Assembly (NCBI GenBank): GCA_023105745.1
Contig: JALGQZ010000007.1
Location: 3,393,592 to 3,457,591, forward strand
Source: Austropuccinia psidii
Lineage: Eukaryota > Basidiomycota > Pucciniomycetes > Pucciniales > Sphaerophragmiaceae
Reading direction: 5' to 3'
DNA length: 64,000 bases
In this document: positions 10,239 through 62,828 of the stretch, piece by piece
How positions within the stretch are numbered: the first letter of the stretch is position 1
Layout: every line of letters begins with the position of its first letter
Position numbers and translations under genes: made by a program
The notes under the pieces: model-generated
The model's input: the letters and a program-made list of their open reading frames with translations, nothing else
What the model was told of the DNA's origin: nothing
Database searches by the model: none

Positions 10239-11047
10239 CAAAATTTCTTTCCATTCTGTTCATCCTTTCTTTATAATTTTATTCACTCATTTCATCAAAA
10301 TTATGACTCTCCAATGCTTATGACCTTTATGATTTGTTTTCATCTCTAAATTTTCTCTCATTCATTCTTCATTATGAAAATTGAAAGCTTACCAGATTTT
10401 ATTCTTGTTTCTCTTTTTTAAAACTCATCTCAAATCATCAATTTTGATTCATTCATAATTCAGGCATAATCTTAATTTTCACCTAATTTTCAAATTTTTC
10501 ATCAATTTATTCAGACACATTCTTCACATCAAGATTCATAGTTGTGTCATTATTCAAGAATTTTGATTTTTGAAGAAGAACTCAATTTATTTTGATTTGA
10601 TTGATTGATTGATTTGAAATGAATTGATATTTACCTCAAGAAAATTGATTGACCTGAATATTTCATTGATTTTGCTAATTTTTCATATCAAGAATTTGGA
10701 CATAAATTGATTTTGCTTCAAGAATTCATTTTGATTGATTGATTTTCTGCAAGATTTTGTTTTTGACTTATTTGGGGTATTGATTCATTAACTTCAAGAT
10801 TTCATTTGACATTGATTGATTGATTTTCCTGAAGTTTTCATTTTGATGTATTTGATTCATTGACTTCAAGTTTTCATTTGATATTTAATTGATTGATTTA
10901 CATGAAGATCTGATTTTGATTTATTGATATTCTTCAATATTTTGATTTTGAATTTTGACTTCAAGCTTTATTTCAAATTGCCTCAGGTTTTCATCTTCAA
11001 ATCTTTATTGATATTCTCCATTTTATTTCATTTTTATCCTCAAATCA
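10239..11047 (+). other. Element B T-rich leader with ATTGA repeats
   Basis: About 800 bp without a credible gene. It is strongly strand-biased toward T, with repeated TTGATTGATT and TTCAAGATTTTGATT units, especially at 10560-10930. H has a leader of the same character at 50899-51572, so this is a lineage trait rather than random low complexity. Confidence 0.6.
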
Positions 11048-12325
11048 TGCCCATCCAATGCTCACCTCCTGCAAGGCAGGAAAGATCTCAGGCCAGAACT
11101 CAAGCTGTTCTTACTTCGAATCCAAGAGGTCCTCCTGATTGTACCCAAGAAGTTCCTCAACTGAGGGCGCATTTAGACAGAGGACCAAATGTGGGAGGAG
11201 CAGCACCATCCAGGAAGGAAGGAAGAGTGCCAAGAAGATCAAGCTTATTCTCAGGAGTAGTTGGTGGACTCCCAGGACTTTCAAGGACCACTCTCAAAGG
11301 TCCAGGTGAAGATGGTGAAGAGGAGGAGGAGAATTCTGTGGAAGAGGAAGAGTCTGATGGTACTGAAGGTGTCCCTGCTCCTGTGGGGCATCCCAAGGTA
11401 CTGGAGGGCCAACTCTAGCCCAGTGTAATCAGTCTGTCTCTCATCAGTCTGAACCATCTTTATTGGCCATTATTCAGCAAATGACTCAGATTATCACCAA
11501 TATTCAAGAAGCTTCATCCTCACAAGCATAAAGACTCCATCTATGAAGGCACCAGAATGCTTTGATGGGACTCAACCCTTGAAAGTTAGAAGTTTCATTC
11601 AGTCTTGTCAACTGATTTTTCATAATGATCTGGAAAATTTATTTGAAGACAGAAATAAAGTTCTCTATTTCACTTCATTTCTCATTGGCAGGTCTGCAAA
11701 ATGGATTGAGCCTTATCTTTCCAATCTTACCAATCAAGACTCAAATTACCTTCTCAATTCTTGGAATTTATTTGAATCTCAACTCTTTACTTTATTCAGG
11801 GACCCAAATGAAGTTAGAAAAGCTGAAGCAGAGTCGGATTCTCTAAGAATTAAAGAAGGTGGCCATGTTTCTTTATACATAGCCTATTTCAGAAGTTTGG
11901 TTTCAAAAATTGGAGATTGGGGTAAAAGGGCTCTTATTCATCATTTCAGGAAGGGATTGCCATACAGGATTTTGGATCAATTGGCCTCCCATCCTTCAAG
12001 AATTGACTCTCTTCAAGACTTAATGAACATTACCCTGGAGCTTTATACCAGGTATCATGAGAGGCAAAATTAAAGGAGTCATCATCAAGAGAAGAAGCCA
12101 GAAGCCTCAAAGTCAAATTCTTCTCATCCTCAAAATTCTTCACGCTCAAGTCAAAAGAAGAATAAGAATTTTCAGAAGAGGGACAATCCCCATTCTTCTT
12201 TATTGAATAAAGATTTCAAGTTGATGAATTCTGAAAAATAAAGAATAATCAAGGAGGGTTTATGTACCTATTGTGGTGGGAAGCATGGTCTTGAGTCCTG
12301 TTTCAAAAGGCCTCAAAATGAATTT
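11048..12325 (+). pseudogene. gag: Element B gag remnant
   Basis: The ATG at 11048 opens MPIQCSPPARQERSQARTQ, aligning with the H Gag start (MPVQHSPPAKNTRSQ) and sharing the LDRGPNVGGAAPSR and acidic EEEEENSVEEEE stretches. The first frame stops near 11418. The capsid-like part resumes at 11543-12073 (APECFDGTQPLKVRSFIQSC; KWIEPYLSNL) and stops at 12071. The knuckle CTYCGGKHGLESC follows near 12265 in a further open piece, before the sequence breaks off at about 12320. The knuckle has the same C-X2-C-X3-H-X4-C spacing as H. Confidence 0.85.
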
Positions 12326-47472: not shown

Positions 47473-48909
47473 TGTCAGGATGAGTCTATGTTGAAGTGGT
47501 AATAAAGCTATTTACAGCTTAAACTATGACTGTGACACGTGGAAAATAGTTTAAAATGCTTTTATAAGGGTTAAAGATGGATTGCTTTAATAATAAAAGG
47601 GCTTTACTATAAGTAATATAGTGGTGGTGAGCGCTGTTGAAAGCCCTGGGTGCAGCTTTACCTGTTGGATTACAATAATAAAGACTACAATACTTTAAAT
47701 TAAGAGTATACCTGATTATTACCCAAGAGTAAAACTGTTTTTGACAGTTTACTACGTAGGGTATTCAAGAGCAGGATGAGGAGACAATTCTGGCTGTGAA
47801 AAGCCTCCTTTTTATCCTGAAATGGGGTGGAAAGGGTGCTAGACCTTTCCACATAGAGGAAGTGAAGTTTTTTCACCCTCCAGGACTGGCTTGTGGTTTG
47901 CAAACAGTCTTTATGCCCTGTATTGGGTTCAGATGTGGTTTTGAAACCACATCTGGGCAGTTTTCACCAATACAGGGTGAAAATCTTCATCTGGGGACCT
48001 CACAGCTTGATTCTGACGTGTATGACGCGTAGAATGCTGTACAGAAACTGTATGGGACCCCAGTATTGACTTACTTATGAGGTATTAAATTATTAAAATG
48101 CTTCTTTGTCTGTTTGACACCTCATAATCAGAGTACAACTGTATCCTGTCATAATACAGCTGTATTGGCCATATTGTGGGATTATAACCTTCAAATGGCT
48201 ATAACTCTGTCGGTTTTTGAGATATCATGCTCAAAGTTGGTTCATTGGATAGCCCTGTATGAGCTCTACACAATGATACCCCATTTGGTATGGTTATCAT
48301 TAAATACGACAAAGTCATCCCATGTACAAGGTTTCTGTACATAGGCATGGTTTGGGCAAAAAGCTGTATTGAGCTTGTTTGCCTCATAACTTCTGTTATA
48401 GTTGAGATATGAAGAAGTGGAAGGCACCATCAGATAGCCCTGATTGTTTTCTTTCCAAAAAGACCCCACTTCAAGTATCCCAAACTAAAACTGTAGAAGT
48501 TAGATGAGAGGTGAATGTTTTGTTCACCCTTATTTGGCCTGAATTTGACCATAACTCAAGTAATACTGGTGCTAGGTCAGTTTGGCTGGTACCATTGGAT
48601 AGCCCTGACTTAGAGCTCCATTTTGAATACCCATTTGATGGGGTTAAGCCTCTCCTTCTAGATTTTAGATGGGAGGTGAAAATTAAGGTTTATGCTCAGC
48701 AATAACTTTGAGCAGGAATAACTTTGTTATTTCTTGTCCTATGGCGATGGGACTTATGTTTTCAGAAAGAGGTGAGTTTCCTCTTTCTTTTGATACCTTT
48801 TGAGCTGATTTGTCTCAGCTCCATGTTTTGGTGGTATCCTGGCTATACCATTGGTTTATGGTATTTTGGCTGTCATGCTTGTGCTCTGGTTTTGAGTCAC
48901 AGGCTGACA
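47473..48909 (+). mobile_element. Solo LTR G (1437 bp) inside F
   Basis: Begins TGTCAGGATG and ends CAGGCTGACA, giving a 6-bp terminal inverted repeat TGTCAG/CTGACA. It is flanked by the perfect duplication CTGTT (47468-47472 and 48910-48914). It contains no transposase or pol. It shares tracts such as ACAGCTGTATTGGCC with the H LTR, so probably belongs to a chromovirus family related to B and H. Strand is assumed, as no internal region fixes it. Confidence 0.85.
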
Positions 48910-50115
48910 CTGTTGATCACAGATTCTGTAGAGTGACTTGGCTATAATTTCAAAGTCTTTCAAGTGTTTCTTATAATAACTGGCAAATCCTAGAAAAGAC
49001 ATCATTTCTTTCTTATTCTGTGGTATTGGCTTAAGTAACACTGCTGCAACTTTATTTTTGTCAATACCTAAGCTTAAACCAGAAACAATATGTCCTAATG
49101 CTTCGACCTCTTCAAAACCAAAATTGCATTTCTTGAGTGAAATCTTCATATTCACTTCTGAAACTTTGTGAATTACTCTTGCAAGTCTTTCAAGGTGCAA
49201 AGACCATGAATCAGAACATATGATAATATCATCAATATAAATGATAAGCCATCCTTCAGATAATTCTGTGGGGAAGATGGTATTTATCATTCTTTGATAA
49301 TGAGATGGTGCATTTTTAATACCAAATGGAATTCTAAGATACTCATAAATACCACAGTGAGTGATAATTATAAGTAATTTCTTAGCTTTAGGCGTCAGAA
49401 CATTTTGGTGAAAGCCTTTCAATGCATCCATTGATGTTATATACTTGGCTTTAGTTAATTGGGTCAAGGTTTCTTGAGTTATAGGAATTGGATCCCTATC
49501 TGGAACTGTGTAGGTATTCAATGCTCTAAAATCTCCAACCATTCTTGACTTATCATTATTCCAGGAAATAATAACAGGTGTTCCCACTTCAACTTATTCA
49601 TTATGGCCTACTTTCCTTAGTACACCAAGTTGTATCAACTCTTGGATATGTTTTTCCAAGGCTTCTCTAGCTCTGGGACTGGCTGGATAAGCTGATCTTC
49701 TAAGTACTGGAGGATATGGTCTGTCAATATTAAGAGTAATATCAACTTCATGTCCTTTTATACCACCTAATGGTTCATTATCAGAGGCAAATGCATTATT
49801 ATATGTGTATAACACATCAATGAGTTCATTTCTCATCTTTGGTGACAATGATGGATTAATTTGTGCTTAAACAAGTTGATTAGCCACAAATTCCTCCTTG
49901 TAAGTATCTTTCTTAGAAGTTACTATTGATATTTTTTTGGACATATTGGAAAAAGCAATTTTTTCTCTTTTGTTTTCTCCAATTGTAAAATATCCGTCTT
50001 TATGGTTATTGATGTCAATACCATAAATATTCAAATAATCATTTCCAAGAATTATATGTTGAGATGTACAATTGTCCATTACTACTATCTCTGTCTTCAC
50101 TCTTATACTTCCTTC
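48910..50115 (-). pseudogene. pol: Element F reverse transcriptase remnant
   Basis: In minus order: the end of protease (49867-50127, VMDNCTSQHIILGNDYLNIY), the RT amino part (49594-49848, GHEVDITLNIDRPYPPVLRR) and RT (48915-49587, [47 protein letters not shown]). A TAA splits the two RT parts at about 49591. H cuts the protease at 50116 and G cuts the RNase H linker at 48909. The YIDD box is intact. Confidence 0.9.
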
Positions 50116-50883
50116 TGTAACAACCATCCATCAGGGGTAAGGGTATTCATTCATACACCCACTCAAACACCCCAAATCAGCAAATCCAGTATCTGCATCA
50201 GCATGCAGTTTCAGCAATCTTCATTCTGAAACATGCATACAGCTTGGTACCTCAATACAGCCTGTCAATACCTGTACAGGCTGGATTCACCCAATACAGT
50301 TTCAATACACCAATATGGAACTGTATGATCACTCAAATACACCACACCTCTTGTACAGGTTCTGTACAGCTGTACAGGACCTGTATTGGCCAGACTCAAT
50401 TCAAATCATCAAGTATTCTCATGAAAACTCTTCCTCTGGATCAGGGCTGGTGATTCTCACATATACCAGCCCCTCTTCCTCCCCCCTGGGGACTTTTCCC
50501 CAGTTAATTAATTTAGTTGATTTATTATTATCTGAATATTCTTATCCTTATATTTTGGGTATTATATTTATTTAATCTTAAGTTAGTCTTTGCCTTTTTT
50601 CTTTCTTCGCCTGTACAGTATGAGTTGGGTGGCCATATCCTTATTAACCCTTCTCTTTCCATTCTGACAGGTTGAAACAGTGGACTTGGACTTGTTTGTG
50701 GTTGGCTCTTCTGTTTCTTATTCTTATTTCTTTTGTTGCTGCTTTTCTTATATTCATTCTTTTAGTAATTCATCTTTAACACTCTTAAGTGTATCTCATC
50801 TTATCTTATCTTTGAGCCCTCCATAAGTGAGTCCCAGTTTACTGAGTGCCAGGCCCTCTTCACTTCGAAGAGCCCCTGTGACA
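50116..50883 (+). repeat. Element H 5' LTR
   Basis: TGTAACAACC to CCTGTGACA. Contains the CTGGGGACTTTTCCCCAG hairpin at 50486-50503 and the AGTTAATTAATTTA segment matching the primer site. ORFs inside occur identically in both LTRs and have no support as genes. Confidence 0.95.
50486..50515 (+). promoter_or_regulatory. H LTR hairpin and predicted transcript start / self-primer
   Basis: 7-bp perfect arms CTGGGGA/TCCCCAG with loop CTTT (50486-50503), running into AGTTAATTAATTTA (50502-50515). The latter is the exact reverse complement of 50885-50898 just after the LTR. In Tf1-type elements the first bases of the RNA prime reverse transcription, so the RNA 5' end is predicted near 50502. The hairpin is also present in B. 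Confidence 0.55.
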
Positions 50884-50898
50884 TTAAATTAATTAACT
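50884..50898 (+). other. Element H primer-binding site (self-priming type)
   Basis: TTAAATTAATTAACT begins at the first base after the LTR. No TGG is present, so this is not a usual tRNA primer site. Fourteen consecutive bases pair with 50502-50515, and a G-U and a U-A pair can extend it. Confidence 0.65.
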
Positions 50899-51572
50899 CA
50901 TATTTGATTCTTTCTTTTCATTCATTATATTCATTTCTCTCATTCATCAATTATGATTCCTTTTATGATTTAATGATCTTAATGATTATGAATTTTTCTT
51001 TCTCATCAATTTTCATCTCATTCATTTCATTCTCATGAAAATTGATTCTTTTTCTTTTCTTAATCATTGCTGACCATTTCATCACTTCATTTTATTTTAT
51101 CAATCAAATTTTTTCTGTGTTCTTATTCAGGTTTTATCTAGGAATTATTGATTGGATTATTCATTGGGATTCATTTGGGTTATTGATTCAGGATTTATTG
51201 GATTTATTGACTTTGAAATCTCAAGATATTGATTGATCCTCAAGAATTTATTTTGATTTATTGATTGACTTGACTCATCAAGATATTGAATTGATTTCTG
51301 AAGATTTTGAATTGATTGATTGATTCCTCAAGACCTTGATTTCATATTGAAGACACTGAATTATTGATTTATTGATTATTGATTTACTCAAGATTATTGA
51401 TATTTGATTTGATTTGATTGTTGATTGATTGAATTTATTTGACTGTTGATTGAATTTGATTCCTCAAGGTTTGAATTGATTCCTCAAGATTCATCAAGAT
51501 TTTATTGTGATTGATTTGGCCAAATTTGATTATTCTTCTTAATACCATCAAGTTATTTTAATTCTTTTCATA
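50899..51572 (+). other. Element H T-rich leader with ATTGA repeats
   Basis: About 670 bp with no gene. T-rich and A-poor at many positions, dominated by TTGATT, TCAAGATT and ATTTATTGATT units from 51150 on. The same character appears in the leader of B. Confidence 0.65.
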
Positions 51573-52934
51573 ATGCCAGTCCAGCATAGCCCCCCAGCAA
51601 AGAATACTAGATCCCAGAAAATTCCAGCTGTTCTCACTCCTACACCAAGGGCTCCTCTTGACCGCACACCATCAGTTCATCAACTGAGTGCAAACTTGGA
51701 CAGAGGACCACCAATGGAAGGAGCAGCACCCTCAAGAAGAGGTGGAATGAAATCTAGAAGATCAAGATCCTTTTCTGGACTTTTGGGTGGCTACCCTGGC
51801 ATGTCTGAAGGTGCAAGAGCAAGATTAGGGGAAGTTGAAGATGAAGAGGGGGAAGAGTCTGTGGAAGAGGAAGATTCTGGGGAAACTGAAGTGGCAGATG
51901 CCTTGGCAAATGCTCCAGAGGTACCTCAGGGTTCTAATCTAGCCCTTTCTAGTCAACCTCTTGTCTCCCAAACTGATCCAAGTCTCCTCAAGATGATGGA
52001 GCAGATGACTCAATTCATGGGACAACTCACTCAAGCAGTTGCCCCCAGGGACAATTCCAAAGCCCCTGCTTTCAAGACTCCATCCATGAAGGCACCTGAT
52101 TCTTTTGATGGTACTCAAGCTCATAAGTTGAGAGGATTTATCCAATCCTGTCAACTAATTTTCCATAATGATCCAGCAAACTTCTTCTCAGACAGGAAGA
52201 AGGTTTTGTACTCAACTTCTTTTCTTACTGGTAGAGCTGGCAAATGGATTGAACCCTACCTCTCAAATATTTCCAATGAAGACCCTTCCTACCTCCTCAA
52301 TAATTGGCCATTGTTTGAATCTCAATTATTCACTCTGTTTGGTGACCCCAATGAAGTCAGGAAAGCTGAACAAGAGTTGGACAATTTGAGGATGAAGGAA
52401 AGTGGTCATGTTTCTTTGTACATAGCAGATTTCAGAAGCTTAATGTCAAGAATTGGAGATTGGGGGGAAAGAGCTTATATCCATGTTTACAGAAGAGGAT
52501 TGGCATCAAGATTATTGGATCAGTTGGCTTCTCACCCCGGAACTTTTGACACTCTTCAAGAACTTATGGATGTCACTTTAGAATTAGACACAAGATATCA
52601 TGAGAGGCAAAAGGAAAAGGGTGGCAATCAAGAAAAGAAGCCTCCAGTCATTGGATCCAATCAGTCTAGGCCTCCTCAAAACTCATCTTCAAAGAGGCCT
52701 CACCAGAAGAAGAATAAGAAGGGCAAGCAATTTCAATCTTCAAAGGACAAACCCCATGCTTCTCTCCTCAATAAGGACAATAAATTAATCGGTTCTGAAA
52801 AGGAGAGGAGGATTCAAGCAGGGTTGTGTACTTATTGTGGTGGAAAGCACCCAATTGAAAAATGCTTCAAGAGACCTCAGAACAAGCCTGGGTCATCATC
52901 AAGAGGCTTCCCTAGCAAGCAGGGAAAAGCCTGA
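51573..52934 (+). CDS. gag: Element H Gag (453 aa)
   Basis: ATG at 51573. A basic and acidic N-terminal region (EDEEGEESVEEEDSGETE) leads to a capsid-like part at about 165-350 (APDSFDGTQAHKLRGFIQSC; WIEPYLSNISNEDPSYLLNN; DPNEVRKAEQELDNLRM), a Lys/Ser/Gln-rich linker and a zinc knuckle at Cys419, Cys422, His426 and Cys431 with unusual C-X2-C-X3-H-X4-C spacing. It forms the particle and binds RNA. The gag stop TGA is at 52932, six bases after a GGGAAAA heptamer. Intact; related to the B gag. Confidence 0.92.
   Translation: MPVQHSPPAKNTRSQKIPAVLTPTPRAPLDRTPSVHQLSANLDRGPPMEGAAPSRRGGMKSRRSRSFSGLLGGYPGMSEGARARLGEVEDEEGEESVEEEDSGETEVADALANAPEVPQGSNLALSSQPLVSQTDPSLLKMMEQMTQFMGQLTQAVAPRDNSKAPAFKTPSMKAPDSFDGTQAHKLRGFIQSCQLIFHNDPANFFSDRKKVLYSTSFLTGRAGKWIEPYLSNISNEDPSYLLNNWPLFESQLFTLFGDPNEVRKAEQELDNLRMKESGHVSLYIADFRSLMSRIGDWGERAYIHVYRRGLASRLLDQLASHPGTFDTLQELMDVTLELDTRYHERQKEKGGNQEKKPPVIGSNQSRPPQNSSSKRPHQKKNKKGKQFQSSKDKPHASLLNKDNKLIGSEKERRIQAGLCTYCGGKHPIEKCFKRPQNKPGSSSRGFPSKQGKA
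52922..52928 (+). promoter_or_regulatory. Predicted -1 frameshift site between gag and pol of H
   Basis: GGGAAAA sits in phase G-GGA-AAA relative to gag codons (CAG GGA AAA GCC TGA). Stepping back one base gives AGC CTG AGT GGG AAT and continues open into pol. Both A- and P-site codons re-pair well in the new frame. I have not identified a downstream pseudoknot. Confidence 0.6.
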
Positions 52935-55900
52935 GTGGGAATCATGATGTGTTCAATGGTTCTCACTTATTTCCTTCAAGAGCACAATTGTGCACTCTGA
53001 ATACTAGTGTCAAGAAATCTTTAAAATTTCTTATTTTTTCTTCAATCTCTGATATTTTTTATAGTATTCTCATTGATTCTGGTGCTACAAACTCTTTTAT
53101 TGCAAAGAATTTTGTTCTCAAGTACTCATTGACTCTGTCAGAGCTCCCTGAAAAGATTCCTCTTTTCATTTTGGATTCTAATGAATCCCCTGCCTTGTTC
53201 ATCACCCATTATACCAAGTGGGTAGTTGACTTGCCTTCCTTCCCAAGCTTTGAATGGGATTTCTTTATCATAGATTCACCCAAAGGAGAAGACCTGATAT
53301 TGGGCTATGATTTCCTTTACCATTTCAATCCCATTATTGATTGGAAAAATGGATTGATCACCTATGATTCTAATCATAAGGATTCTAGTGGTATTACTCC
53401 TTCTACTAGTAATGACTTATCCACTGCTGTCAACAGTGTTGCTCTGGCTGGTGAACTTAAGACATCTTCCATCCCTTCTTCTGTCCATATCCCTTCCATA
53501 ATTACCTCTCAGTCATTACTTCCATCAAGAGATGAAGTCTTCAAAGAGATAAAGGATGTTGGAGAAGATGTTGCCATATCTTCACTTCATCTCTTCCAAG
53601 GGGATATGGACCTTCCTCCCTTATCCTTTCATGCATCCCTGGAGGAGCAGTGGGATGAGGAGGAAGAGCCAGAAGAAATTGAAACTGTGCTGAAGGTTGT
53701 TCCTCCTGCTTATCACCATTATTTGGATGTATTCTCCAAGGTGAAAGCAGAGAAACTTCCTCCACACCGCGCCTGTGATCACCATATCGAATTGGAGGGT
53801 CTTCTACCTCCAATTGGTGTTATCTACTCATTATCAAATCAAGAGTCAGAAACACTGCGGGCCTACATTTCAGAGAATGTAGAGAAAGGTTTCATTAGAC
53901 CAAGCTCCTCTTCAACAGGAGCACCTGTCCTTTTTGTCAAGAAATGGGATGGAGGTCTTCGTTTGTGTGTTGACTACCGCAAACTCAATGCTGTCACTAG
54001 GAAGAACAGATACCCTGTTCCTCCTATGAACCAGCTCCTTACCGTATTCAACGGGTCCACTATCTTCTCCAAGATAGATTTGCGTGGTGCATATAACCTT
54101 CTGAGAATCAAAGAGGGGGATGAGCACTTAACTGCCTTTAGAACCAAATATGGTAGTTATGAGTATTTGGTCATGCCATTTGGTTTGACCAATGCTCCTG
54201 CTTCTTTCCAGAATCTGGTAAATGATATATTTGCAGATTTCTTGGATGTGTTTGTTGTGGTTTATTTAGATGACATTATGGTCTTTTCCAGTTCTGAGGA
54301 GGAACATGTCAAGCATGTGGCCTCTGTCCTCCAAAGACTGAGGGACAATAATCTGTTTGCCAAAGCCTCCAAGTGTGTATTCCATGCCTCAAGTGTGGAA
54401 TACTTGGGCTATGTTGTTTCAAGTGATGGCCTCAAGATGGATTCTTCAAAGGTTCAGCAAATCCTCAATTGGCCTCAGCCCAGAAACATCAAGGCTCTTC
54501 AATCTTTTCTAGGCTTCGCCAATTTTTATCGACGTTTCATTAAAAATTATTCTAAAAAAATCACTTCTCTCACTTCCCTCCTTAAAAAAGATTCTCCCTT
54601 CATCTTCAATGAGGAAGCTCTTAGTCAGTTTCAAGCACTCAAAGAAGCTTTCACCTCTGCTCCTATCTTATCTCACTTTAATCCTTCTCTACCTACTATA
54701 GTAGAGACTGATGCTTCTGATTATGCATTGGGCGCCGTACTGAGTCAGGTGAATGACTCTGGAAAGCATCCCATTGCATTTGATAGTCGCAAGCTCTTAC
54801 CAGCTGAGCTCAACTATGAGATTCATGACAAGGAAGTCCTTGGCATAGTTTGGGCTCTCAAGCGCTGGAGGGCATTTCTTCTTTCTCTTTCCAATTCTTT
54901 TGAGGTCTTGACAGACCACTCTTCCTTGCAGTATTTCATGTCTTCCAAAGTTCTTACTCGTCGTCAGGCCCGCTGGGCTGAGTTTCTCTCTGAGTTTCAT
55001 TTCACTATCACTTACCGCCCAGGCAGGCTGGCCACTTTACCAGATGCCTTGTCACGTCGGGACGACGTGTACCCAGAGAGGGGGGTGGACTTCATCATCA
55101 AGAATCCTCAAAATCTTCATCAAGTTCTTAAGCAAGATGGAATTCAAGAGTCAAGATTCTTCTCAATCAAAGTGGAAATTTTCTCAGATTTAGTGGACAA
55201 GATTCAAAAAGAAGTATGGCAAGACAAAGACTATAAAGAAATACTCAAGCAACTAGCAAGAGGTGAATCAGTTCCAGATTATTCTCTTGAACCTCAAGCC
55301 AAGTTATTATTATTCAAAGATAGAGTGGTAATCCCAAGCAATGAAGAACTTCAACTCAATATTCTTCAAAAGCGTCATGACTCACCATTGGCTGGCCATC
55401 CTGGCCAGGAGAAGACCCTCAAGCTCATCAAGAGGGATTTTTATTGGGCTGGCATGAATCAATTTATCAAGGACTATGTGTCCTCATGTCAGCAATGTTC
55501 AAGAAACAAGAACATTCACCACAAGAAGTTTGGATTACTCAAGCCTCTTTCAATTCCGTCTGGTCCTTGGAATTCATTATCAATGGACTTTATCACTCAA
55601 TTGCCACTGTCCAACAACTTTGATTCAATTTTAGTAGTTGTGGACAGATTCTCAAAAATGGCAATCTTCATTCCAACTTATGGCACAATCACTGCTCTGG
55701 ATTTAGCTCAAATATTCATTAGCCATGTATTTTCCAAGCATGGACTCCCAGTCAGTATTGTCAGTGATAGAGGATCCTTATTTGTTTCATCATTCTGGAC
55801 TCAATTGTGTCAGCAGCTCAAGATATCAAGAGATCTTTCAACTGCCTTTCACCCTGAAACAGATGGACAGACAGAGAGGGTAAATCAGATACTAGAACAG

Positions 55901-56650
55901 TACCTTCGGATGTATGTCGGCTATCATCAAGATGACTGGCACACCTGGCTCCCTCTGGCTGAATTTGCCTATAATAATGCAGAACATTCATCAACCAAGC
56001 AATCACCTTTTTTCACCATTTATGGAAGAAATCCCAGCTTTGACTCAATCCATATTTCTCAAGACTCACCTGCTGGAAAGTTATCAACAAAACTCCAATC
56101 AGTACAGCAAGTTGTCAAAGAGGAATTAGAGTCAGCAATAAGGAGATTCAAGAAGTATGCAGATAGAAATAGGGCAATTCCACCTGATTTCCAACCTGGG
56201 GACAAAGTATGGCTAGCTTCCAAGAACATCAAGACAACAAGACCCACCAAGAAATTATCAGAAAGATGGTTGGGACCCTTTGAAGTTCTGAAGAAGATTG
56301 GCAGCCACGCATATCACCTCAAGTTGCCTCAGCAATGGAAGACAGTTCACCCTGTATTCCATGTGTCCTTATTAGAACCAGTCAAGCATTCAACTATCCC
56401 AAATCGTCATCAATTGCCGCCACCACCAGTTCTAGTGGAGGAGCAAGAAGAATGGGAAGTGGCTCAGGTTCTGGACTCAAAACTCAAGAGAGGTAAATTA
56501 TGGTATCTTGTAGAGTGGAAAGGATTCAGTGAAGACCCAGAAAGAACCACTTGGGAACCATCTTCCAACCTTACCAACTCACCAGACCTTGTCAGGGATT
56601 TTCACTCATTGTATCCAGACAAGCCTGGTCCAAATACCTCAAGAGTTTGA
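52928..56650 (+). CDS. pol: Element H Pol with chromodomain (1233 aa from first internal start)
   Basis: The open frame is in -1 phase to gag. Its first start-like codon is GTG at 52949, so expression by frameshift from 52928 is more likely. Numbered from 52949: protease Asp43 in IDSGATNSFI, RT YLDD 439-442 with LVMPFGLTNAPASFQNLV, RNase H Asp588 in ETDASDYALGAVL, integrase zinc His810, His817, Cys847 and Cys850, DD35E Asp880, Asp940 and Glu976, and a GPF motif (RWLGPFEVLKKIGSHAYHL). A chromodomain covers ~1168-1223 (EWEVAQVL, WYLVEWKGF, TTWEPSSNL). All catalytic residues are intact. The chromodomain and self-priming signal place it with the Tf1/sushi-type chromoviruses. It is the most complete autonomous element here. 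Confidence 0.93.
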   Translation, partial: SLSGNHDVFNGSHLFPSRAQLCTLNTSVKKSLKFLIFSSISDIFYSILIDSGATNSFIAKNFVLKYSLTLSELPEKIPLFILDSNESPALFITHYTKWVVDLPSFPSFEWDFFIIDSPKGEDLILGYDFLYHFNPIIDWKNGLITYDSNHKDSSGITPSTSNDLSTAVNSVALAGELKTSSIPSSVHIPSIITSQSLLPSRDEVFKEIKDVGEDVAISSLHLFQGDMDLPPLSFHASLEEQWDEEEEPEEIETVLKVVPPAYHHYLDVFSKVKAEKLPPHRACDHHIELEGLLPPIGVIYSLSNQESETLRAYISENVEKGFIRPSSSSTGAPVLFVKKWDGGLRLCVDYRKLNAVTRKNRYPVPPMNQLLTVFNGSTIFSKIDLRGAYNLLRIKEGDEHLTAFRTKYGSYEYLVMPFGLTNAPASFQNLVNDIFADFLDVFVVVYLDDIMVFSSSEEEHVKHVASVLQRLRDNNLFAKASKCVFHASSVEYLGYVVSSDGLKMDSSKVQQILNWPQPRNIKALQSFLGFANFYRRFIKNYSKKITSLTSLLKKDSPFIFNEEALSQFQALKEAFTSAPILSHFNPSLPTIVETDASDYALGAVLSQVNDSGKHPIAFDSRKLLPAELNYEIHDKEVLGIVWALKRWRAFLLSLSNSFEVLTDHSSLQYFMSSKVLTRRQARWAEFLSEFHFTITYRPGRLATLPDALSRRDDVYPERGVDFIIKNPQNLHQVLKQDGIQESRFFSIKVEIFSDLVDKIQKEVWQDKDYKEILKQLARGESVPDYSLEPQAKLLLFKDRVVIPSNEELQLNILQKRHDSPLAGHPGQEKTLKLIKRDFYWAGMNQFIKDYVSSCQQCSRNKNIHHKKFGLLKPLSIPSGPWNSLSMDFITQLPLSNNFDSILVVVDRFSKMAIFIPTYGTITALDLAQIFISHVFSKHGLPVSIVSDRGSLFVSSFWTQLCQQLKISRDLSTAFHPETDGQTERVNQILEQYLRMYVGYHQDDWHTWLPLAEFAYNNAEHSSTKQSPFFTIYGRNPSFDSIHISQDSPAGKLSTKLQSVQQVVKEELESAIRRFKKYADRNRAIPPDFQPGDKVWLASKNIKTTRPTKKLSERWLGPFEVLKKIGSHAYHLKLPQQWKTVHPVFHVSLLEPVKHSTIPNRHQLPPPPVLVEEQEEWEVAQVLDSKLKRGKLWYLVEWKGFSEDPERTTWEPSSNLTNSPDLVRDFHSLYPDKPGPNTSRV

Positions 56651-57420
56651 TTTATGGTGCTTGGTGGGGAGAAGAAGTTATGAAAGTAAGTTCCTCTCCT
56701 GGCATGCACCTTTAAGGGGGTATTCTACCCATATGTTGTTGTAAGCATCACCTTGGCCACCTTGTGAGCACTTGTCATTTCTTTGGACAGGTTCAGGAAG
56801 CATACAACATCAATACCCTCCATTTGGACCTTATCAAGATATGGCCCAATGTTTTCTTTATTTATTTTTCATTTCTTTCTTTATTATCATTTCATTTTAC
56901 GCCAATCATCATAATTCAAGACATTCATTTACTTCAAGTCATCACGGCAATTCTTTTCATAAGTCATTTATGGCAATTCAACTCAGAAGTCATTTATGGC
57001 AAGTTATTTCAAGTTTATGGTGCTTGGTGGGGAGTGGAAGTTATGAAAGTAAGTTCCATCTCCTGGTATGCATCCCTGAGGGTTCTACTTCTTGTAAAAC
57101 ATTACCTTGGCCACTCTGTGAGCATCAAAATGCTTGGTTTTCCTTTTTTCAGACTTATTGGCCAAAATCAAGCAACTCACCACAAGAAGGACCAACCATC
57201 AGGATTTTTCTTTATTTTCTTTCTTTACTCTCATTTTCTCTTATTCTTTTATTTTTCTTTCTTTCTTTACTTGTATAATTTTCTTTCTTTTATTTCTTTA
57301 AAGCAGCAGCATCCCCTCCCCAAATCATGTATTGGGAGGTTCCATTATTTTTTCATTTTTTTTTAGTATTTATAAGAGTGGGGATAGAAGGCAAGCCAAA
57401 CACAAACAAGGAAAAGGAAA
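56651..57420 (+). repeat. Element H spacer with an imperfect ~105-bp duplication
   Basis: 56653-56762 and 57017-57125 are imperfect direct copies (both begin TTATGGTGCTTGGTGGGGAG and share GAAGTTATGAAAGTAAGTTC and CCTTGGCCAC). The remainder is T/C-rich (TTTCTTTCTTT runs at 57210-57300). Long ORFs here, such as 56764-57366, are low-complexity and not credible. The segment lies between convergent pol and antisense gene ends. Confidence 0.6.
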
Positions 57421-58661
57421 CTAGTTATCTCTACCCAAGTCATCGAAAGTTCTCTGGAAATCATTTATCAACTCATCTTCATACCAGGCAAATTTTGCAG
57501 CCATTTCTTCAGAAGCAGTACCTGGAATCGTCCTGTCATTGGCATACATAATCACCTCTCTGCTATTTCTATCAACTCTCCTGAACAATCTGGCCACAGC
57601 ATCTTGATTTTCACTAGCCGCGTTGGGATCTTCTCTGGTAACCCGGATAGGCCAACGTTCTCTTCTTTGGAATACTTGAGCGGCAGGAAACGGCAAAGGG
57701 GACAATCCATCTCTTCTTCTGCTGGAGCTGGCCACAGGTTGGAGTTGACGGGAGGTGTTTATGGGTGAGTTTCTGGGCTGTTGAACTGGAGATGGTCTTA
57801 CTGCTGGATTCAAGGCAGGCCTGGTGGTGTGGGAAGTAGTTGGTGATGGAGGAGGAAGGGTTGTAGGAATTGAAGCAAGCATTGGTTGGAAGGTTCTTGG
57901 AGTGCTGGGAATCACTTGGCTTTGGAATCTGTGGTTGGCAAGAGGTTGAGAAGAGGAATTGCTGGATGGATGGCCACTTGAATGAGGGATAACTTGAACT
58001 TCTTCACCATCCAACTCATCACTTCCTTCAGCATCTGGATCTGATGGGGAATCAACAATTCTTCTTAGCTTCTTCACTACTTTCACCACTCCATCAGCAT
58101 TGGTCCTTGAAATGGGAATTTCTGAGCTGTAGTGGATGGGCCTACCACCAATTGGAATGGGCCCTCCAACATTAGTCCATCTGGCCACATCCCTCTGCCT
58201 AGAACCAGTCACTACATCAAAATATCAGCATCAATTCAACCAAGAAATGCAAATCACTCACATTGAGAAAAGCCAGAAGTGGCATAAGGGGTAGGTTCCT
58301 CAAGAATGGGGAATTCCTGCCCATAAGGCCCATCCTTCCTACTCCATAAGTGCCTCCTCACCTGGGACAAAGTTGATCCGGTACGGCGGCAAGGCTTCTT
58401 CCCAATAAAGCAGAAATGGCATTTTGACGATCGAGGATTGTAATGTTGAAAGCAATCCTTCCCCCTGGCCAAACACTCAGTACAGGCAGGATCAAGAACT
58501 TCAACTGCTCTGAACCCATCATATGTTTGGGAGGGGTCAAAATGGCCAGAAGACGCCATGGAGGGAGAAGACAATCGACTGAAGACGCCAGAACCATGAA
58601 GAACAGACGGTGGCGGTGCAGAAGGGGAAGATTCAGTGAGTTCAGTCAGTTTGGAACTCAT
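57421..58661 (-). CDS. H antisense cargo gene: Zn2Cys6-like protein, two exons (396 aa)
   Basis: Minus strand, join 58661-58262 and 58211-57421; 50-nt intron 58261-58212 with GTGAGT donor and GATGTAG acceptor, splitting a Leu codon. ATG at 58661 (MSSKLTELTESSPSAPP). Cys60, 63, 70, 81, 84 and 91 form C-X2-C-X6-C-X10-C-X2-C-X6-C, which fits the fungal Zn2Cys6 binuclear cluster, followed by RR and a basic segment (VRRHLWSRKDGPYG). The middle is Pro/Ser-rich with an acidic patch (DPDAEGSDELDGEEV). The C-terminus is charged and probably helical (REVIMYANDRTIPGTASEEM; DELINDFQRTFDDL). Role unknown: DNA binding is inferred from the cysteine pattern only. From memory, similar hypothetical proteins are common in rust genomes. 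It is convergent with pol and oriented away from the 3' LTR. Confidence 0.8.
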
Positions 58662-59007
58662 AACTGAAGAAAGTGCAAGCAGAAGATTCAAGACGTCAGA
58701 ATCAATCCACTCCACATCAAGAAAAAAAAGTTGACTCAAGGAACTGGGGCCATAACTCAATTATGCCCCACCTCAAAGCCTCTAAGGTGAAGGTTCACAC
58801 CCCTTTGGGGCTGAACTCATCACCCAGGGCCTCCCCTGCAACTTTGGGGGAGGCCAAGATCTTGATGGTCCTGGACCCCTTCAATGGATCCAGGCCATAT
58901 ATGGTGAAATTTGGAATGGGGCCATTTTTGGGCCCCTTGGTCACCCTGGGTCCCCAGTAAATTTGGGCCCAGGGGCTCCATTTTGGTCCTGAGGGCCTCC
59001 AATAGCC

Positions 59008-59080
59008 CCCACGGACCGCGGACCACGGCGTACGGCCCACGGACCGCGGCGTACAGTCCACGGCCCACGGACCGTAGGAC
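59008..59080 (+). repeat. 28-bp GC-rich tandem repeat
   Basis: CCCACGGACCG recurs at 59008, 59036 and 59064, a spacing of exactly 28 bp, with intervening variants of GCGGACCACGGCGTACGG. About 2.6 units; imperfect. Confidence 0.75.
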
Positions 59081-59646
59081 CCCAAGACTTCAAAAAGGCC
59101 TATTATGGCCAAAAAACCCAGAAAATCAAAAAATTGCCCCAATCACCAAAACACCCAGCAAGGCCAAAAAGGCCATAAAAAGCAAGATACATCAAGATCA
59201 CTCAAGATGGAGGCCACAGTCCAAAACCCACTGGAAGGGCTGCCTGAGGCCAATTCCTTGGATCATGGGGACAAGACCCCTTGGAGGTTCATTGAATGGA
59301 TTAAGTCTGGGCCAATGAGTACAAGTCATATACTCATTGGGCACCAATTTTTGAGCACAAGTACTCAATGGCCTTTATTCTGGGATATATCCCAAGGCCA
59401 CATCCCAAGACATGGCTGACTGAATCAAAAGAAAGAATTGCATACTCTGGAAGGAATACTCACTCAAATTTGAAAAGAAAGGGGGGAATCAATTGAATTT
59501 GGCAGGGAAGAAGTAATGAAGGATTTTCAGGATAATGGTCAAGAGGAAAGAAAATTAAAAAAGAAAATTTTTGAAAAAATGTGGGGATATTGAGATGCCA
59601 CTCAACAGTGGCAGGGTATTATGGTGTTCAGGAGCCCACCAGTTTC

Positions 59647-59659
59647 AAGAGGGGGATAC
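59647..59659 (+). other. Element H polypurine tract
   Basis: AAGAGGGGGATAC immediately before the 3' LTR TGTAACAACC; standard position for plus-strand priming. Confidence 0.8.
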
Positions 59660-60427
59660 TGTAACAACCATCCATCAGGGGTAAGGGTATTCATTCATAC
59701 ACCCACTCAAACACCCCAAATCAGCAAATCCAGTATCTGCATCAGCATGCAGTTTCAGCAATCTTCATTCTGAAACATGCATACAGCTTGGTACCTCAAT
59801 ACAGCCTGTCAATACCTGTACAGGCTGGATTCACCCAATACAGTTTCAATACACCAATATGGAACTGTATGATCACTCAAATACACCACACCTCTTGTAC
59901 AGGTTCTGTACAGCTGTACAGGACCTGTATTGGCCAGACTCAATTCAAATCATCAAGTATTCTCATGAAAACTCTTCCTCTGGATCAGGGCTGGTGATTC
60001 TCACATATACCAGCCCCTCTTCCTCCCCCCTGGGGACTTTTCCCCAGTTAATTAATTTAGTTGATTTATTATTATCTGAATATTCTTATCCTTATATTTT
60101 GGGTATTATATTTATTTAATCTTAAGTTAGTCTTTGCCTTTTTTCTTTCTTCGCCTGTACAGTATGAGTTGGGTGGCCATATCCTTATTAACCCTTCTCT
60201 TTCCATTCTGACAGGTTGAAACAGTGGACTTGGACTTGTTTGTGGTTGGCTCTTCTGTTTCTTATTCTTATTTCTTTTGTTGCTGCTTTTCTTATATTCA
60301 TTCTTTTAGTAATTCATCTTTAACACTCTTAAGTGTATCTCATCTTGGCTTATCTTTGAGCCCTCCATAAGTGAGTCCCAGTTTACTGAGTGCCAGGCCC
60401 TCTTCACTTCGAAGAGCCCCTGTGACA
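59660..60427 (+). repeat. Element H 3' LTR
   Basis: 768 bp, practically identical to 50116-50883. The only difference I see is GG at about 60347-60348 against TA in the 5' LTR. Confidence 0.95.
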
Positions 60428-62828
60428 CCTTCAGGGTGTGGAAATACAATATTAGTGTCCAATATCCCCAAAGGGTTCATATTATTACTGGCACTACTAA
60501 ATTGTACACCTTCTATTGATAATAGATGTTTTTTCCATTCAGGAAGTATAGCTTTAATATAATCCTTACCCACACAAGTGCAAAATGCCCCTGTATCCAA
60601 ATTTACCTTGGCTTCAATATCATTCATCAGAATTAATGTCATACAACATGCTCCAGCAGTGTATGTTTTACCCCTAGCAGTTTTAGTCTTACACATTCTG
60701 GAATCCTGGATATTGATCAGGTTATAGCAATCCTCACTATATTGTGGCAAGTGTGTATGGACTTCTGTGACCTCAAAGAAAGCTGTAATGCTTTCAATGG
60801 GATAATCCTCTACTGGTGTATCTTCAGAGACTTCAGATTCTAGATCAGATTCCTCTTTCTCTTCAGTACACTGAACTTCTTCAATGACTTGAACTTCATT
60901 GATTTTTGTTTTCTTGGTGCAAGTATTGGCTAAATGTGAAGTACTTCCACATTTATGACACTTCAAGACATTTCTTTCAGGTTTTCTGTCTTCCCTGGAA
61001 ATCTTTGGGATCATTTTGGACTCCATAGGAATTTTAGTCAAGGTTTTACCAATTCTTGTTCTAGTAATTATATCTTCCATTGCATTAATGTAGTCTTCTG
61101 TTGAACAGGGTTCTACACATCTACACTTGATAGCATGTTCTAGCTCTCCTCCACATTTTCTTAATAGTTTCATATTAATCATGGTGTCAGAAATATCTGG
61201 GTGTAAAGCAGATAATCTGTCTTTTTGCTTGAAGAACCAAGTAAGTGGTTTATCCTTTTCTGAGTTAAAAATGGCACTTTCAAAAGCATTTTCCATTTTA
61301 AACCTCCGAGAATTATTGGCCCATTTGGTAACCACTTCAGATTTCCACCAAGACCAATCATGTTTTCAATGATCTAGTCTCATCTTGTAATACCATTTTT
61401 TTGCTGTTCTGTTAAACAGACAGTGTAATTTTCCCACTATAATTTCATCAGGTATATGAAAGTCTTCTTGCAACATATTAATAGTTCTGATGAACTCAAT
61501 ATGGTTGTATTCACCCTCACCAAAGAATGTTGGCCATTCTTCCAATTTGGGAACATCTTTTGCAGATATAACATTATCTCCTAAGAATGGGGTCAAACTT
61601 TCTTTAACAGAGAGTTTTTCTTCAGTCAAAGGCGTAGAATGTCTTGGCATATGTGGTTCATAATTCTTATCAATTTGCTCTACATTTGCAATGATTTCAT
61701 TCTTTACCTTCTGCCTTTCACTGTCACATTTTGCCAAATATGTGGCAAACTGATTGGTATTTTTAGACATTTCCAAGACATGGTCTTTCAGAATTCTAAG
61801 TTGATAATTAATGTTTAAAATGGAAATATTTTCCATTTAATCATTTTGTACTTGGAATTTACTCTCAATTCTGTCACATCTATTGATAATTGAATCAAGT
61901 CTGACATTTGTCAATTGATACCATTCAGTATACTTCTTGTCATTTCTCTGCAATTCACGTATGTCTAATATGCTTTTGTTTAACTTTGCATCAAATTTGC
62001 CAAGTTTTACATCAATACTAGATTTAAAGAAGTGTATTTGATGTATTATTTGCGTGGAAAAGTTCTGTCCATCCTTTCCTGCTCTTTGGCTGTAAGTTCC
62101 ATGAGAGTTCTGGCCATATTGAAGACACTTTCCACTTCTGAAGGCTCCAATTTGGGAATCCTGTACCCTTGTGGGTAAGGTCTGTGCCAATTCTTTTTGC
62201 CTTTTCCCTTTCCTTGATGGTTCTTGGGACTTTTCTGCTTCTTCTGAGGTCCTCTGGGCTTGTCTTTGGACACTTCTGGAGCTGGTTTGGAGCTGGTAGA
62301 TGCCACTGGGCCTTCTGTCTCCAAAGCTGGAGTCATTTCCAGTTCCTTCTTCTGGTCTATGGATAAAAGACTTTGGTTCTTCAACCAATTCTTTATCTTT
62401 TTGACCTTGTCTTTGCAAGATGATGGGCTCCAACCTCCTAAGAGTTCTATGGTCTTCTCCTGACCCAGAAAGCTCTTGATTTGTAAGTAGGAGTTCATGG
62501 CCCCCTTCCAAAGGCTTGGGCATATTTCCCACTCCTCTTCTTTGGCTGCTCTGAACCAATTTTTGTATTGGAATTGATAAATTCCTACTACTACCACTTG
62601 AAAGTGGTTCAGCCCTTGAAGTATTATAATGAATCAGTCCAGATTCAGAATTCACATCAAAATTTGTGGGTACAGACTTTGGGGAATGGGGGCAACTGTG
62701 GCATCCTCCATATGTGTCTTTCTGGAGGAAGATTTGACACTTCTGGATTTGGTCTTGCCTCTTCCTTGTCCACATCCATCTGTCTGTACTGAATAGTTGC
62801 TTCCATTTCTGGTATGCACCATTTTCAT
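60428..62828 (-). pseudogene. gag: Element F gag and protease start
   Basis: From ATG 62828/62822 (MKMVHTRNGSNYSVQTDG). Pieces: 62652-62828, 61837-62775 (a different frame, showing an indel), 61366-61836 (capsid block LEEWPTFFGEGEYNHIEFIR), and 60433-61335 with the knuckle CHKCGSTSHLANTC near 60925-60965 and protease VNLDTGAFCTCVGKDYIKAI. A stop near 61836 and a frameshift near 61365 break it. H cuts the protease at the codons for PHPEG, which resume at 50115 as EGSIRVKTEIVVMDN. The DTG active site is intact. Confidence 0.88.
62046..62597 (-). CDS. Element F ORF-X, overlapping gag
   Basis: 183 residues from an alternative start (GTG at 62597): GIYQFQYKNWFRAAKEEEWE, then SYLQIKSFLGQEKTIELLGG, PVASTSSKPAP, a Lys-rich stretch and YRIPKLEPSEVESVFNMART. 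It aligns along its length with the E and A copies although the rest of F is badly decayed. It overlaps the gag piece 61837-62775 in another frame. Function unknown. Confidence 0.5.
   Translation of the reverse strand: MVVVGIYQFQYKNWFRAAKEEEWEICPSLWKGAMNSYLQIKSFLGQEKTIELLGGWSPSSCKDKVKKIKNWLKNQSLLSIDQKKELEMTPALETEGPVASTSSKPAPEVSKDKPRGPQKKQKSPKNHQGKGKGKKNWHRPYPQGYRIPKLEPSEVESVFNMARTLMELTAKEQERMDRTFPRK

What the first reader, a model, noticed from the sequence alone, without database searches (positions are those of the whole stretch)
57421..58661. Retrotransposon H carries an antisense, intron-containing Zn2Cys6-like gene
Between pol and the 3' LTR of a young, otherwise complete chromovirus lies a minus-strand gene with two exons and a 50-nt GT-AG intron. 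The joined 396-aa frame is open and has C-X2-C-X6-C-X10-C-X2-C-X6-C, the spacing of fungal Zn2Cys6 DNA-binding clusters, with basic residues after it. An intron in antisense sense survives reverse transcription of the sense RNA, since it is not spliced from that strand. A mobile element that moves its own possible transcription factor could influence host or element expression. The cysteine spacing and splice sites are seen; the DNA-binding role is inference.
Basis: partly seen in the sequence, partly recalled or inferred. Interest (0 to 1): 0.9.

Follow-up and report, generated by a model that had tools for sequence, protein, structure and literature searches.

The report
Retrotransposon's spliced antisense zinc-cluster-like gene
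A retrotransposon in what is likely the myrtle rust fungus carries, on its opposite strand, a gene with a predicted intron that is kept by selection about as strongly as the element's own replication genes; it likely makes a regulator that would bind a variable repeat array just in front of it.

Summary
A complete chromodomain Ty3/Gypsy element (50115-60427; LTRs 769 nt, two mismatches) has a minus-strand two-exon gene between pol and 3' LTR: 396 aa, 50-nt GT-AG intron, C-X2-C-X6-C-X10-C-X2-C-X6-C. It behaves as a real gene. In 48 full young copies from the same genome, six cysteines and splice sites are intact 48 of 48. In exon 2, which was not used to pick copies, variants shared by two or more copies are 48 synonymous to 14 nonsynonymous (omega about 0.10); on the same 20 elements omega is 0.135, against 0.134 for gag and 0.157 for pol. 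Singletons look near neutral (0.70). Ten diverged copies keep a GT-AG intron at the same place, 10 of 10.

Found beyond the finding: a CpG-rich array of CCGNNNN heptads about 350 nt upstream, in 49 of 50 young copies, of 2 to at least 21 CCG units, changing in steps of 7. Fungal Zn2Cys6 factors bind CGG triplets, so I infer a self-regulating pair of protein and operator. No Pfam or PDB match supports Zn2Cys6 membership; expression and binding are untested. Closest known: antisense ORFs of plant Retand elements, and HBZ of HTLV-1.

The parts
50115..50883 (+). 5' LTR, 769 nt
   Evidence: Matches 59659-60427 except two adjacent bases; CCTTC at 50110-50114 and 60428-60432
50502..50515 (+). LTR stretch AGTTAATTAATTTA, likely start of the RNA and self-primer
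   Evidence: LTR bases 388-401 are the reverse complement of 50885-50898, which begins one base after the 5' LTR; LTR window 376-400 is nearly invariant among 45 copies
51573..52934 (+). gag, 453 aa
   Evidence: Ty3_capsid 7e-12, Retrotrans_gag 2e-10
52949..56650 (+). pol, 1233 aa: protease, RT, RNase H, integrase, chromodomain
   Evidence: RVP_2, RVT_1, RT_RNaseH, Integrase_H2C2, rve, Chromo
58262..58661 (-). exon 1 of the antisense gene, with the six-cysteine cluster (residues 60-91)
   Evidence: cysteines in 48 of 48 full young copies
58212..58261 (-). predicted intron, 50 nt, GTGAGT...TAG
   Evidence: GT-AG in 48 of 48 young and 10 of 10 diverged copies
57421..58211 (-). exon 2 of the antisense gene
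   Evidence: variants shared by two or more of 48 copies: 48 syn, 14 nonsyn, p 1.2e-17
58662..59007 (-). stretch between array and start codon, possible leader or promoter
   Evidence: 1 CpG in 346 nt; mostly lower diversity than the stretch beyond the array
59008..59074 (-). array of CCGNNNN heptads (CGGNNNN on +), candidate operator
   Evidence: 8 of 9 units with CGG in strict 7-nt register; 11 of the window's 66 CGG/CCG; CpG o/e 1.3
59659..60427 (+). 3' LTR

Best explanation
The minus-strand gene is a protein gene of the retrotransposon, kept by selection about as strong as that on gag and pol, with a predicted intron; it likely makes a nuclear zinc-cluster protein that would bind the CGG heptad array just upstream of its own start and so control its own, and perhaps the element's, transcription. 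Shown: structure, intron signals at the same place in young and diverged copies, six cysteines in young copies, purifying selection, array at a nearly fixed distance. Inferred: that the gene is transcribed and spliced, that the cysteines hold two zinc ions, that the protein enters the nucleus, that it binds CGG, and that the outcome is regulation. The intron lies in the antisense direction, so the sense RNA that is reverse transcribed would not be spliced there and the intron is copied along.
For: Exon 2, not used to choose the copies: variants shared by two or more of 48 copies are 48 syn, 14 nonsyn (expected 25% syn; p 1.2e-17; omega 0.10); singletons 28 syn, 57 nonsyn, 1 stop (omega 0.70). 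On the same 20 elements, shared-variant omega is 0.135 for exon 2 (11 syn, 4 nonsyn), 0.134 for gag and 0.157 for pol; 20 of 20 have gag and pol over their full length. dN/dS from the window to ten diverged copies 0.10-0.29 although this includes decay after insertion. GT-AG 48 of 48 and 10 of 10. Third-position composition like pol's. Array: 8 of 9 heptads in register, densest CGG cluster of the window; 30 of 30 copies of the first set, 2-21 CCG units, length modulo 7 being 5 in 26 and 4 in 4; over all 50 copies present in 49; heptads in register in diverged copies: 5 of 10 by scan, 8 of 10 read by eye between the same boundaries; five-heptad pattern 2175 times in the genome against 3 for the control pattern; array boundary 302-338 nt upstream of the start in 25 of 27 genes on contig C1. 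Gal4, Leu3, Hap1, Put3 and Ppr1 typically bind pairs of CGG triplets (passages of PMC5559640).
Against: No Zn_clus match for the protein, for 71 relatives or for two isolated domains, with Gal4 as working control; in the PDB only one chance-level hit, E 1.3, and none for the domain. No RNA evidence. Among 120 predicted A. psidii MF-1 proteins only 28 keep all six cysteines at exact spacing; on their tree cysteine changes were not rarer on internal branches than other changes (30 internal, 72 terminal; Fisher p 0.57), and cluster majorities differed at 3 of 6 cysteines at one cut and 2 of 6 at another. These are in good part decayed or wrongly modelled copies on a poorly resolved tree, but they do not show cysteine-specific protection. 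Only 5 of 10 diverged copies keep all six. The array is down to two units in 3 of 50 young copies and replaced by LTR-like sequence in one, and 11 of 29 arrays on C1 do not abut the exact boundary 18-mer.
Confidence: 0.45

Rival explanations
1. The protein is a selected accessory protein that works on RNA or in the particle (a zinc-knuckle or chaperone role, or RNA export), not as a DNA-binding regulator; the array has another cause.
For: No Zn_clus match; retroviral accessory proteins that transport viral RNA are discussed for plant antisense ORFs (passages of PMC7264820); the antisense strand of the array folds better than 199 of 200 shuffles (z -2.9).
Against: The array of CGG sits at a nearly fixed distance upstream of the gene, which an RNA or particle role would not need.
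Confidence: 0.2
2. The protein counters host silencing or steers host chromatin, and does not regulate the element's own promoter.
For: Of the parts of the element measured, only the array is not CpG-depleted; A. psidii TEs were likely silenced and decayed through methylated cytosine (abstract of PMC8063080).
Against: No domain match to any such factor.
Confidence: 0.15
3. The array is only an unstable minisatellite that grows and shrinks at reverse transcription, without function, whatever the protein does (this can hold together with any of the other readings of the protein).
For: Length varies in steps of 7 between copies whose gene is 98-100% identical; three of 50 copies have two units and one has none.
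Against: It stays CpG-rich (o/e 1.3) while its flanks have 1 CpG in 346 and 0 in 579 nt; heptads at the same place in 5 of 10 (scan) or 8 of 10 (by eye) diverged copies.
Confidence: 0.35
4. A passenger: a host gene caught by chance and carried neutrally, or only an antisense RNA with an accidental frame.
For: Decayed copies abound.
Against: Purifying selection on shared variants, dN/dS 0.10-0.29 to diverged copies, GT-AG kept in 58 of 58.
Confidence: 0.03

Closest known systems
Antisense ORFs of plant Tat/Retand elements (Grande gene23, RIRE2, Retand, TRP28 proteins; PMC11963269 and PMC7264820, passages read)
   Same: Gene on the opposite strand between pol and 3' LTR, conserved in the family, suggested to be nuclear or DNA-binding and to regulate transposition
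   Different: Those are plant elements (Retand: non-chromovirus) with TRP28 or, in single cases, SMC-type domains; neither main text has the word 'intron' or 'zinc'. Here a fungal chromodomain element, a predicted 50-nt intron and a six-cysteine cluster
HBZ of HTLV-1 (PMC3185765, abstract and passages read)
   Same: Antisense retroviral gene (a cited title there names spliced and unspliced forms) whose protein controls viral transcription and may stimulate its own
   Different: bZIP protein, transcripts begin in the 3' LTR, a virus; here a six-cysteine cluster and a separate upstream array in a retrotransposon
Fungal Zn2Cys6 (Gal4-type) transcription factors
   Same: C-X2-C-X6-C-Xn-C-X2-C-X6-C spacing, N-terminal place, basic residues after the cluster; candidate CGG sites nearby
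   Different: No profile match to Zn_clus and no other Pfam domain; carried by a mobile element
Tf1/sushi chromoviruses (PMC6317226, passages read)
   Same: Chromodomain and a self-primer site
   Different: The antisense gene and heptad array; no RT tree was made here

Membership tests
Zn2Cys6 binuclear cluster proteins (PF00172) | Six cysteines at C-X2-C-X6-C-X5-12-C-X2-C-X6-8-C (spacing range recalled) | tested here: met
   48 of 48 full young copies; 28 of 120 MF-1 proteins; 5 of 10 diverged copies
Zn2Cys6 binuclear cluster proteins (PF00172) | Match to the family profile | tested here: not met
   No Zn_clus hit for the protein, 71 relatives or two isolated domains; Gal4 control 1.1e-12
Zn2Cys6 binuclear cluster proteins (PF00172) | Gal4-like fold with two zinc ions | not testable with these tools
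Zn2Cys6 binuclear cluster proteins (PF00172) | Binding of CGG triplets | not testable with these tools
   Only a candidate array of CGG heptads
Tf1/sushi chromoviruses | Chromodomain at the end of pol | tested here: met
   PF00385 2.8e-10
Tf1/sushi chromoviruses | Self-priming site | tested here: met
   14-nt complementarity of LTR 388-401 to 50885-50898
Tf1/sushi chromoviruses | Place in an RT tree | not tested
   No tree made
Retand antisense ORFs | Antisense ORF between pol and 3' LTR | tested here: met
Retand antisense ORFs | TRP28 domain (PF04195) | tested here: not met
   No Pfam hit at E up to 10
HBZ-like antisense genes | bZIP protein | tested here: not met
   No Pfam hit
HBZ-like antisense genes | Antisense, spliced transcript | not testable with these tools
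   Splice sites conserved but no RNA data

The most novel reading that the evidence does not exclude
A fungal retrotransposon carries its own complete gene switch: a spliced antisense gene for a zinc-cluster protein and, at a fixed place in front of it, a rapidly resizing array of that protein's binding sites, so that each new copy is born with a different number of operator units and hence a different setting of the switch.
Probability: 0.28. Interest if true: 0.92.

Novelty: new variant of a known kind. Interest (0 to 1): 0.78.

Why it matters
[quoted passage not shown] Here one is seen, by its substitution pattern, to be about as needed for propagation as gag and pol, and in a fungus that is likely A. 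psidii, whose genome is over 90% transposable elements, predominantly Gypsy (abstract of PMC8063080). With at least hundreds of copies that differ in array length but little else in the gene, the genome is a ready-made series for asking how operator number affects an element's success, and the protein is a candidate for how a retrotransposon governs its own output.

Tried and rejected
Pfam and PDB searches for the protein and its cysteine domain gave no relevant match. Homologue searches in 5.8 billion proteins: 697 hits and 822 hits, best 120 of each listed; the listed rows are all A. psidii MF-1, so relatives in other species could not be seen and are not excluded. A viral-contig scan found no relative. 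A parsimony test on MF-1 proteins gave no sign that the cysteines are specially protected, and cluster majorities were mixed. The related gag fragment at 11047-12322 has no related pol beside it to compare. A bacterial-type promoter scan of the upstream stretch is not relevant to a fungus and gave nothing of use. A passenger gene was considered and rejected on the substitution pattern. RNA folding of the array: sense strand ordinary (z -0.8), antisense strand better than shuffles (z -2.9); kept as part of a rival. Not in print as far as seen: the searches, judged by titles and starts of abstracts of the rows listed, show no paper on an antisense or zinc-cluster gene in a fungal Gypsy element; PMC8063080 and PMC12210899 have no occurrence of 'antisense' or 'zinc' in their main text. 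The library lacks most subscription papers.

Full report
What is there. The element spans 50115-60427. Its LTRs are 769 nt and differ at two adjacent bases; the flanking CCTTC is a target-site duplication. Gag (51573-52934) and pol (52949-56650) are open and carry capsid, protease, RT, RNase H, integrase and chromodomain matches. It sits between parts of another, minus-strand gag-pol element (ORFs at 48856-49587 and 60340-61335). One base after the 5' LTR begins a stretch complementary to LTR bases 388-401 over 14 nt, the self-priming arrangement of Tf1/sushi chromoviruses (passages of PMC6317226); LTR window 376-400 is nearly invariant among the 45 of 48 copies with an alignable LTR.

The antisense gene. 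On the minus strand, exon 1 is 58661-58262, the intron 58261-58212 (GTGAGT to TAG), exon 2 58211-57421, 396 aa. All six cysteines lie in residues 60-91. Codon-position composition is like that of pol. The three plus-strand frames across exon 2 have 8-10 stops each.

Host. The 120 listed of 697 homologues of the protein are from Austropuccinia psidii MF-1, GC is 33.5%, and A. psidii has a genome of just over 1 Gb with 33.8% GC (abstract of PMC8063080 among the passages). I take the host to be A. psidii or a very close relative; this is inference.

Selection. I took 50 copies from the genome (the 30 best, cut out, and 20 of the further places listed there); 48 have the full gene, two are truncated (L008, L027) and were dropped from the counts. 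Copies were ranked by exon 1 protein score, so exon 1 is biased and exon 2 is the fair test. In exon 2, variants present in one copy: 28 syn, 57 nonsyn, 1 stop (omega 0.70). Present in two or more: 48 syn, 14 nonsyn (expected 25.3% syn from the observed spectrum; p 1.2e-17; omega 0.10). Exon 1: one copy 22 syn, 7 nonsyn; shared 20 syn, 5 nonsyn. Six cysteines and GT-AG: 48 of 48; fully open: 43 of 48. An earlier count on 28 copies agrees; there the gene's own frame has the strongest excess of synonymous change of the six frames in exon 2 (0.49 observed, 0.25 expected; the plus frame that shares third positions is next at 0.46 against 0.28, but it is not open). For 20 of the same elements gag and pol were fetched: 20 of 20 have both over their full length, 15 gag and 14 pol without frameshift or stop; shared-variant omega is 0.134 for gag (51 syn, 15 nonsyn, 2 stop) and 0.157 for pol (153 syn, 59 nonsyn, 2 stop), singletons 0.80 and 0.70. 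On just these 20 copies exon 2 gives 0.135 (11 syn, 4 nonsyn) and singletons 0.67. So selection on the antisense gene is about as strong as on the replication genes. The pattern, near neutral in singletons and constrained in shared variants, is what is expected if an element must have a working gene to leave copies.

Diverged copies. A search with the divergent relative P0109 gave 9204 candidates and 159 matches, part of them listed. I fetched 10 of these places; they were chosen as little decayed: eight have no in-frame stop in the listed exon 2, L079 has none over its whole match, and L080 is the place 98% identical to P0109, so they are not a random sample. Nucleotide identity to the gene is 74-95%. 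The intron is at the same place with GT-AG in 10 of 10 while its sequence has changed (p 0.10-0.32). dN/dS to the window gene is 0.10 for the nearest (L077) and 0.18-0.29 for the others. Five of ten keep all six cysteines; the other five have lost two (four copies) or fewer or more, between one and three. L080 has no ATG at the window's start place.

The heptad array. Upstream of the start codon, 59008-59074 is a tandem array: CGGNNNN on the plus strand, CCGNNNN in the direction of the gene, 8 of 9 units in strict register; in stretches of 63 nt no other period from 3 to 21 has more than 4 CGG in register, that one being 14. Eleven of the 66 CGG/CCG in the 64-kb window lie there; simulations of the element reach at most 8 and of the local stretch at most 10 in 80 nt. 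CpG o/e is 1.3 in the array, 0.04 and 0.00 in its two flanks, 0.04 in gag, 0.20 in pol, 0.20 and 0.41 in the two exons, 0.07 in the LTR. In the first 30 copies the array is present in 30, with 2-21 CCG units, its length modulo 7 being 5 in 26 and 4 in 4, between copies whose gene is 98-100% identical. Over all 50 copies, 48 could be scored by the start-codon pattern: 44 have three or more CCG units, three have two, and L034 has none at the place; the two unscored copies (L025, L037) do have arrays, and L034 has LTR-like sequence there instead. So 49 of 50 have an array, three of them of two units. Among the 10 diverged copies a relaxed scan finds three or more heptads in register 313-354 nt upstream in 5 (L071, L073, L075, L076, L078); by eye, between the same boundary sequences, I see heptads, often with CCG turned into CTG or CCA, in 8, the flank of L074 and L080 not aligning. 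Genome-wide, five heptads in register occur 2175 times (overlapping matches) against 3 for the reversed control pattern, and the last unit with its boundary, an exact 18-mer, 1076 times against 0. On contig C1, of 29 distinct arrays among the places listed, 7 lie 336-392 nt upstream of a gene that one search listed, 18 abut the boundary 18-mer and 11 do not; what lies beside those 11 I could not read. Of 27 genes listed on C1 below 45.69 Mb, 25 have the boundary 302-338 nt upstream.

How it likely works. [quoted passage not shown] The array offers CGG in direct repeat every 7 nt, and CCGCGG as everted repeat. My reading is that the antisense protein is a zinc-cluster factor that binds these heptads in front of its own gene. 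By analogy with HBZ, which lowers sense transcription and may raise its own (abstract and passages of PMC3185765), it could set the balance of sense and antisense transcription. Every step after 'the gene is under selection' is inferred.

Against it. The cysteine domain has no Zn_clus match where Gal4, typed from recall as a control, scores 1.1e-12, and no PDB relative (one hit at E 1.3; none). I therefore do not file it as a Zn2Cys6 protein; it has the spacing only. Among 120 MF-1 proteins, 28 keep the exact spacing (35 of 157 with the second search). On the tree of those proteins cysteine changes fall on internal and terminal branches like others, and clusterings showed non-cysteine majorities at 3 of 6 or 2 of 6 positions. 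Of 121 rows only 92 align well over the cluster, so those models are in good part decayed or wrongly spliced; still, the result is not support.

Novelty. [quoted passage not shown] New here, as far as my searches show, are the fungal chromodomain host element, the predicted intron, the six-cysteine cluster, selection measured to be about equal to that on gag and pol, and the paired hypervariable array. I rate it a new variant of a known kind.

Noticed in passing
50502-50515 and 50885-50898: Self-priming arrangement: 14 nt of the LTR are complementary to a stretch one base after it, as in Tf1/sushi elements; the LTR stretch is nearly invariant among copies.
   Followed up: partly
50256-50389 and the same place in the 3' LTR: Cluster of CTGTACAG-type palindromes in the first half of the LTR, a possible factor-binding cluster of the sense promoter.
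   Followed up: no
56651-56770 and 57014-57124: A repeat of about 120 nt, 79.5% identical, between pol and the antisense gene.
   Followed up: no
48856-49587 and 60340-61335: The element lies between parts of another, minus-strand gag-pol element.
   Followed up: partly
11047-12322: Gag fragment of a related element, 59-65% identical in protein, without a related pol beside it.
   Followed up: partly
P0001-P0120 (A. psidii MF-1 proteins): Lost cysteines are mostly Phe and Asp to Tyr is common, as G to T on the coding strand would give; G to T and C to A are also frequent among young copies, so the decay is rich in transversions on both strands.
   Followed up: no
59005-59085: The antisense strand of the heptad array folds as RNA better than 199 of 200 shuffles (z -2.9); the sense strand does not.
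   Followed up: partly
G000:C1:167046 and C1:186773: Arrays with CCGTAAG units that do not abut the family's boundary 18-mer; perhaps another family or a host locus with such arrays.
   Followed up: no
59080-59658: The stretch between array and 3' LTR varies more among young copies (mean 3.1% to the window copy) than the 346 nt between array and start codon (1.8%) or the exons (0.6-0.8%).
   Followed up: no
L034: One young copy of the gene has LTR-like sequence where the array should be: a rearranged or nested copy.
   Followed up: no
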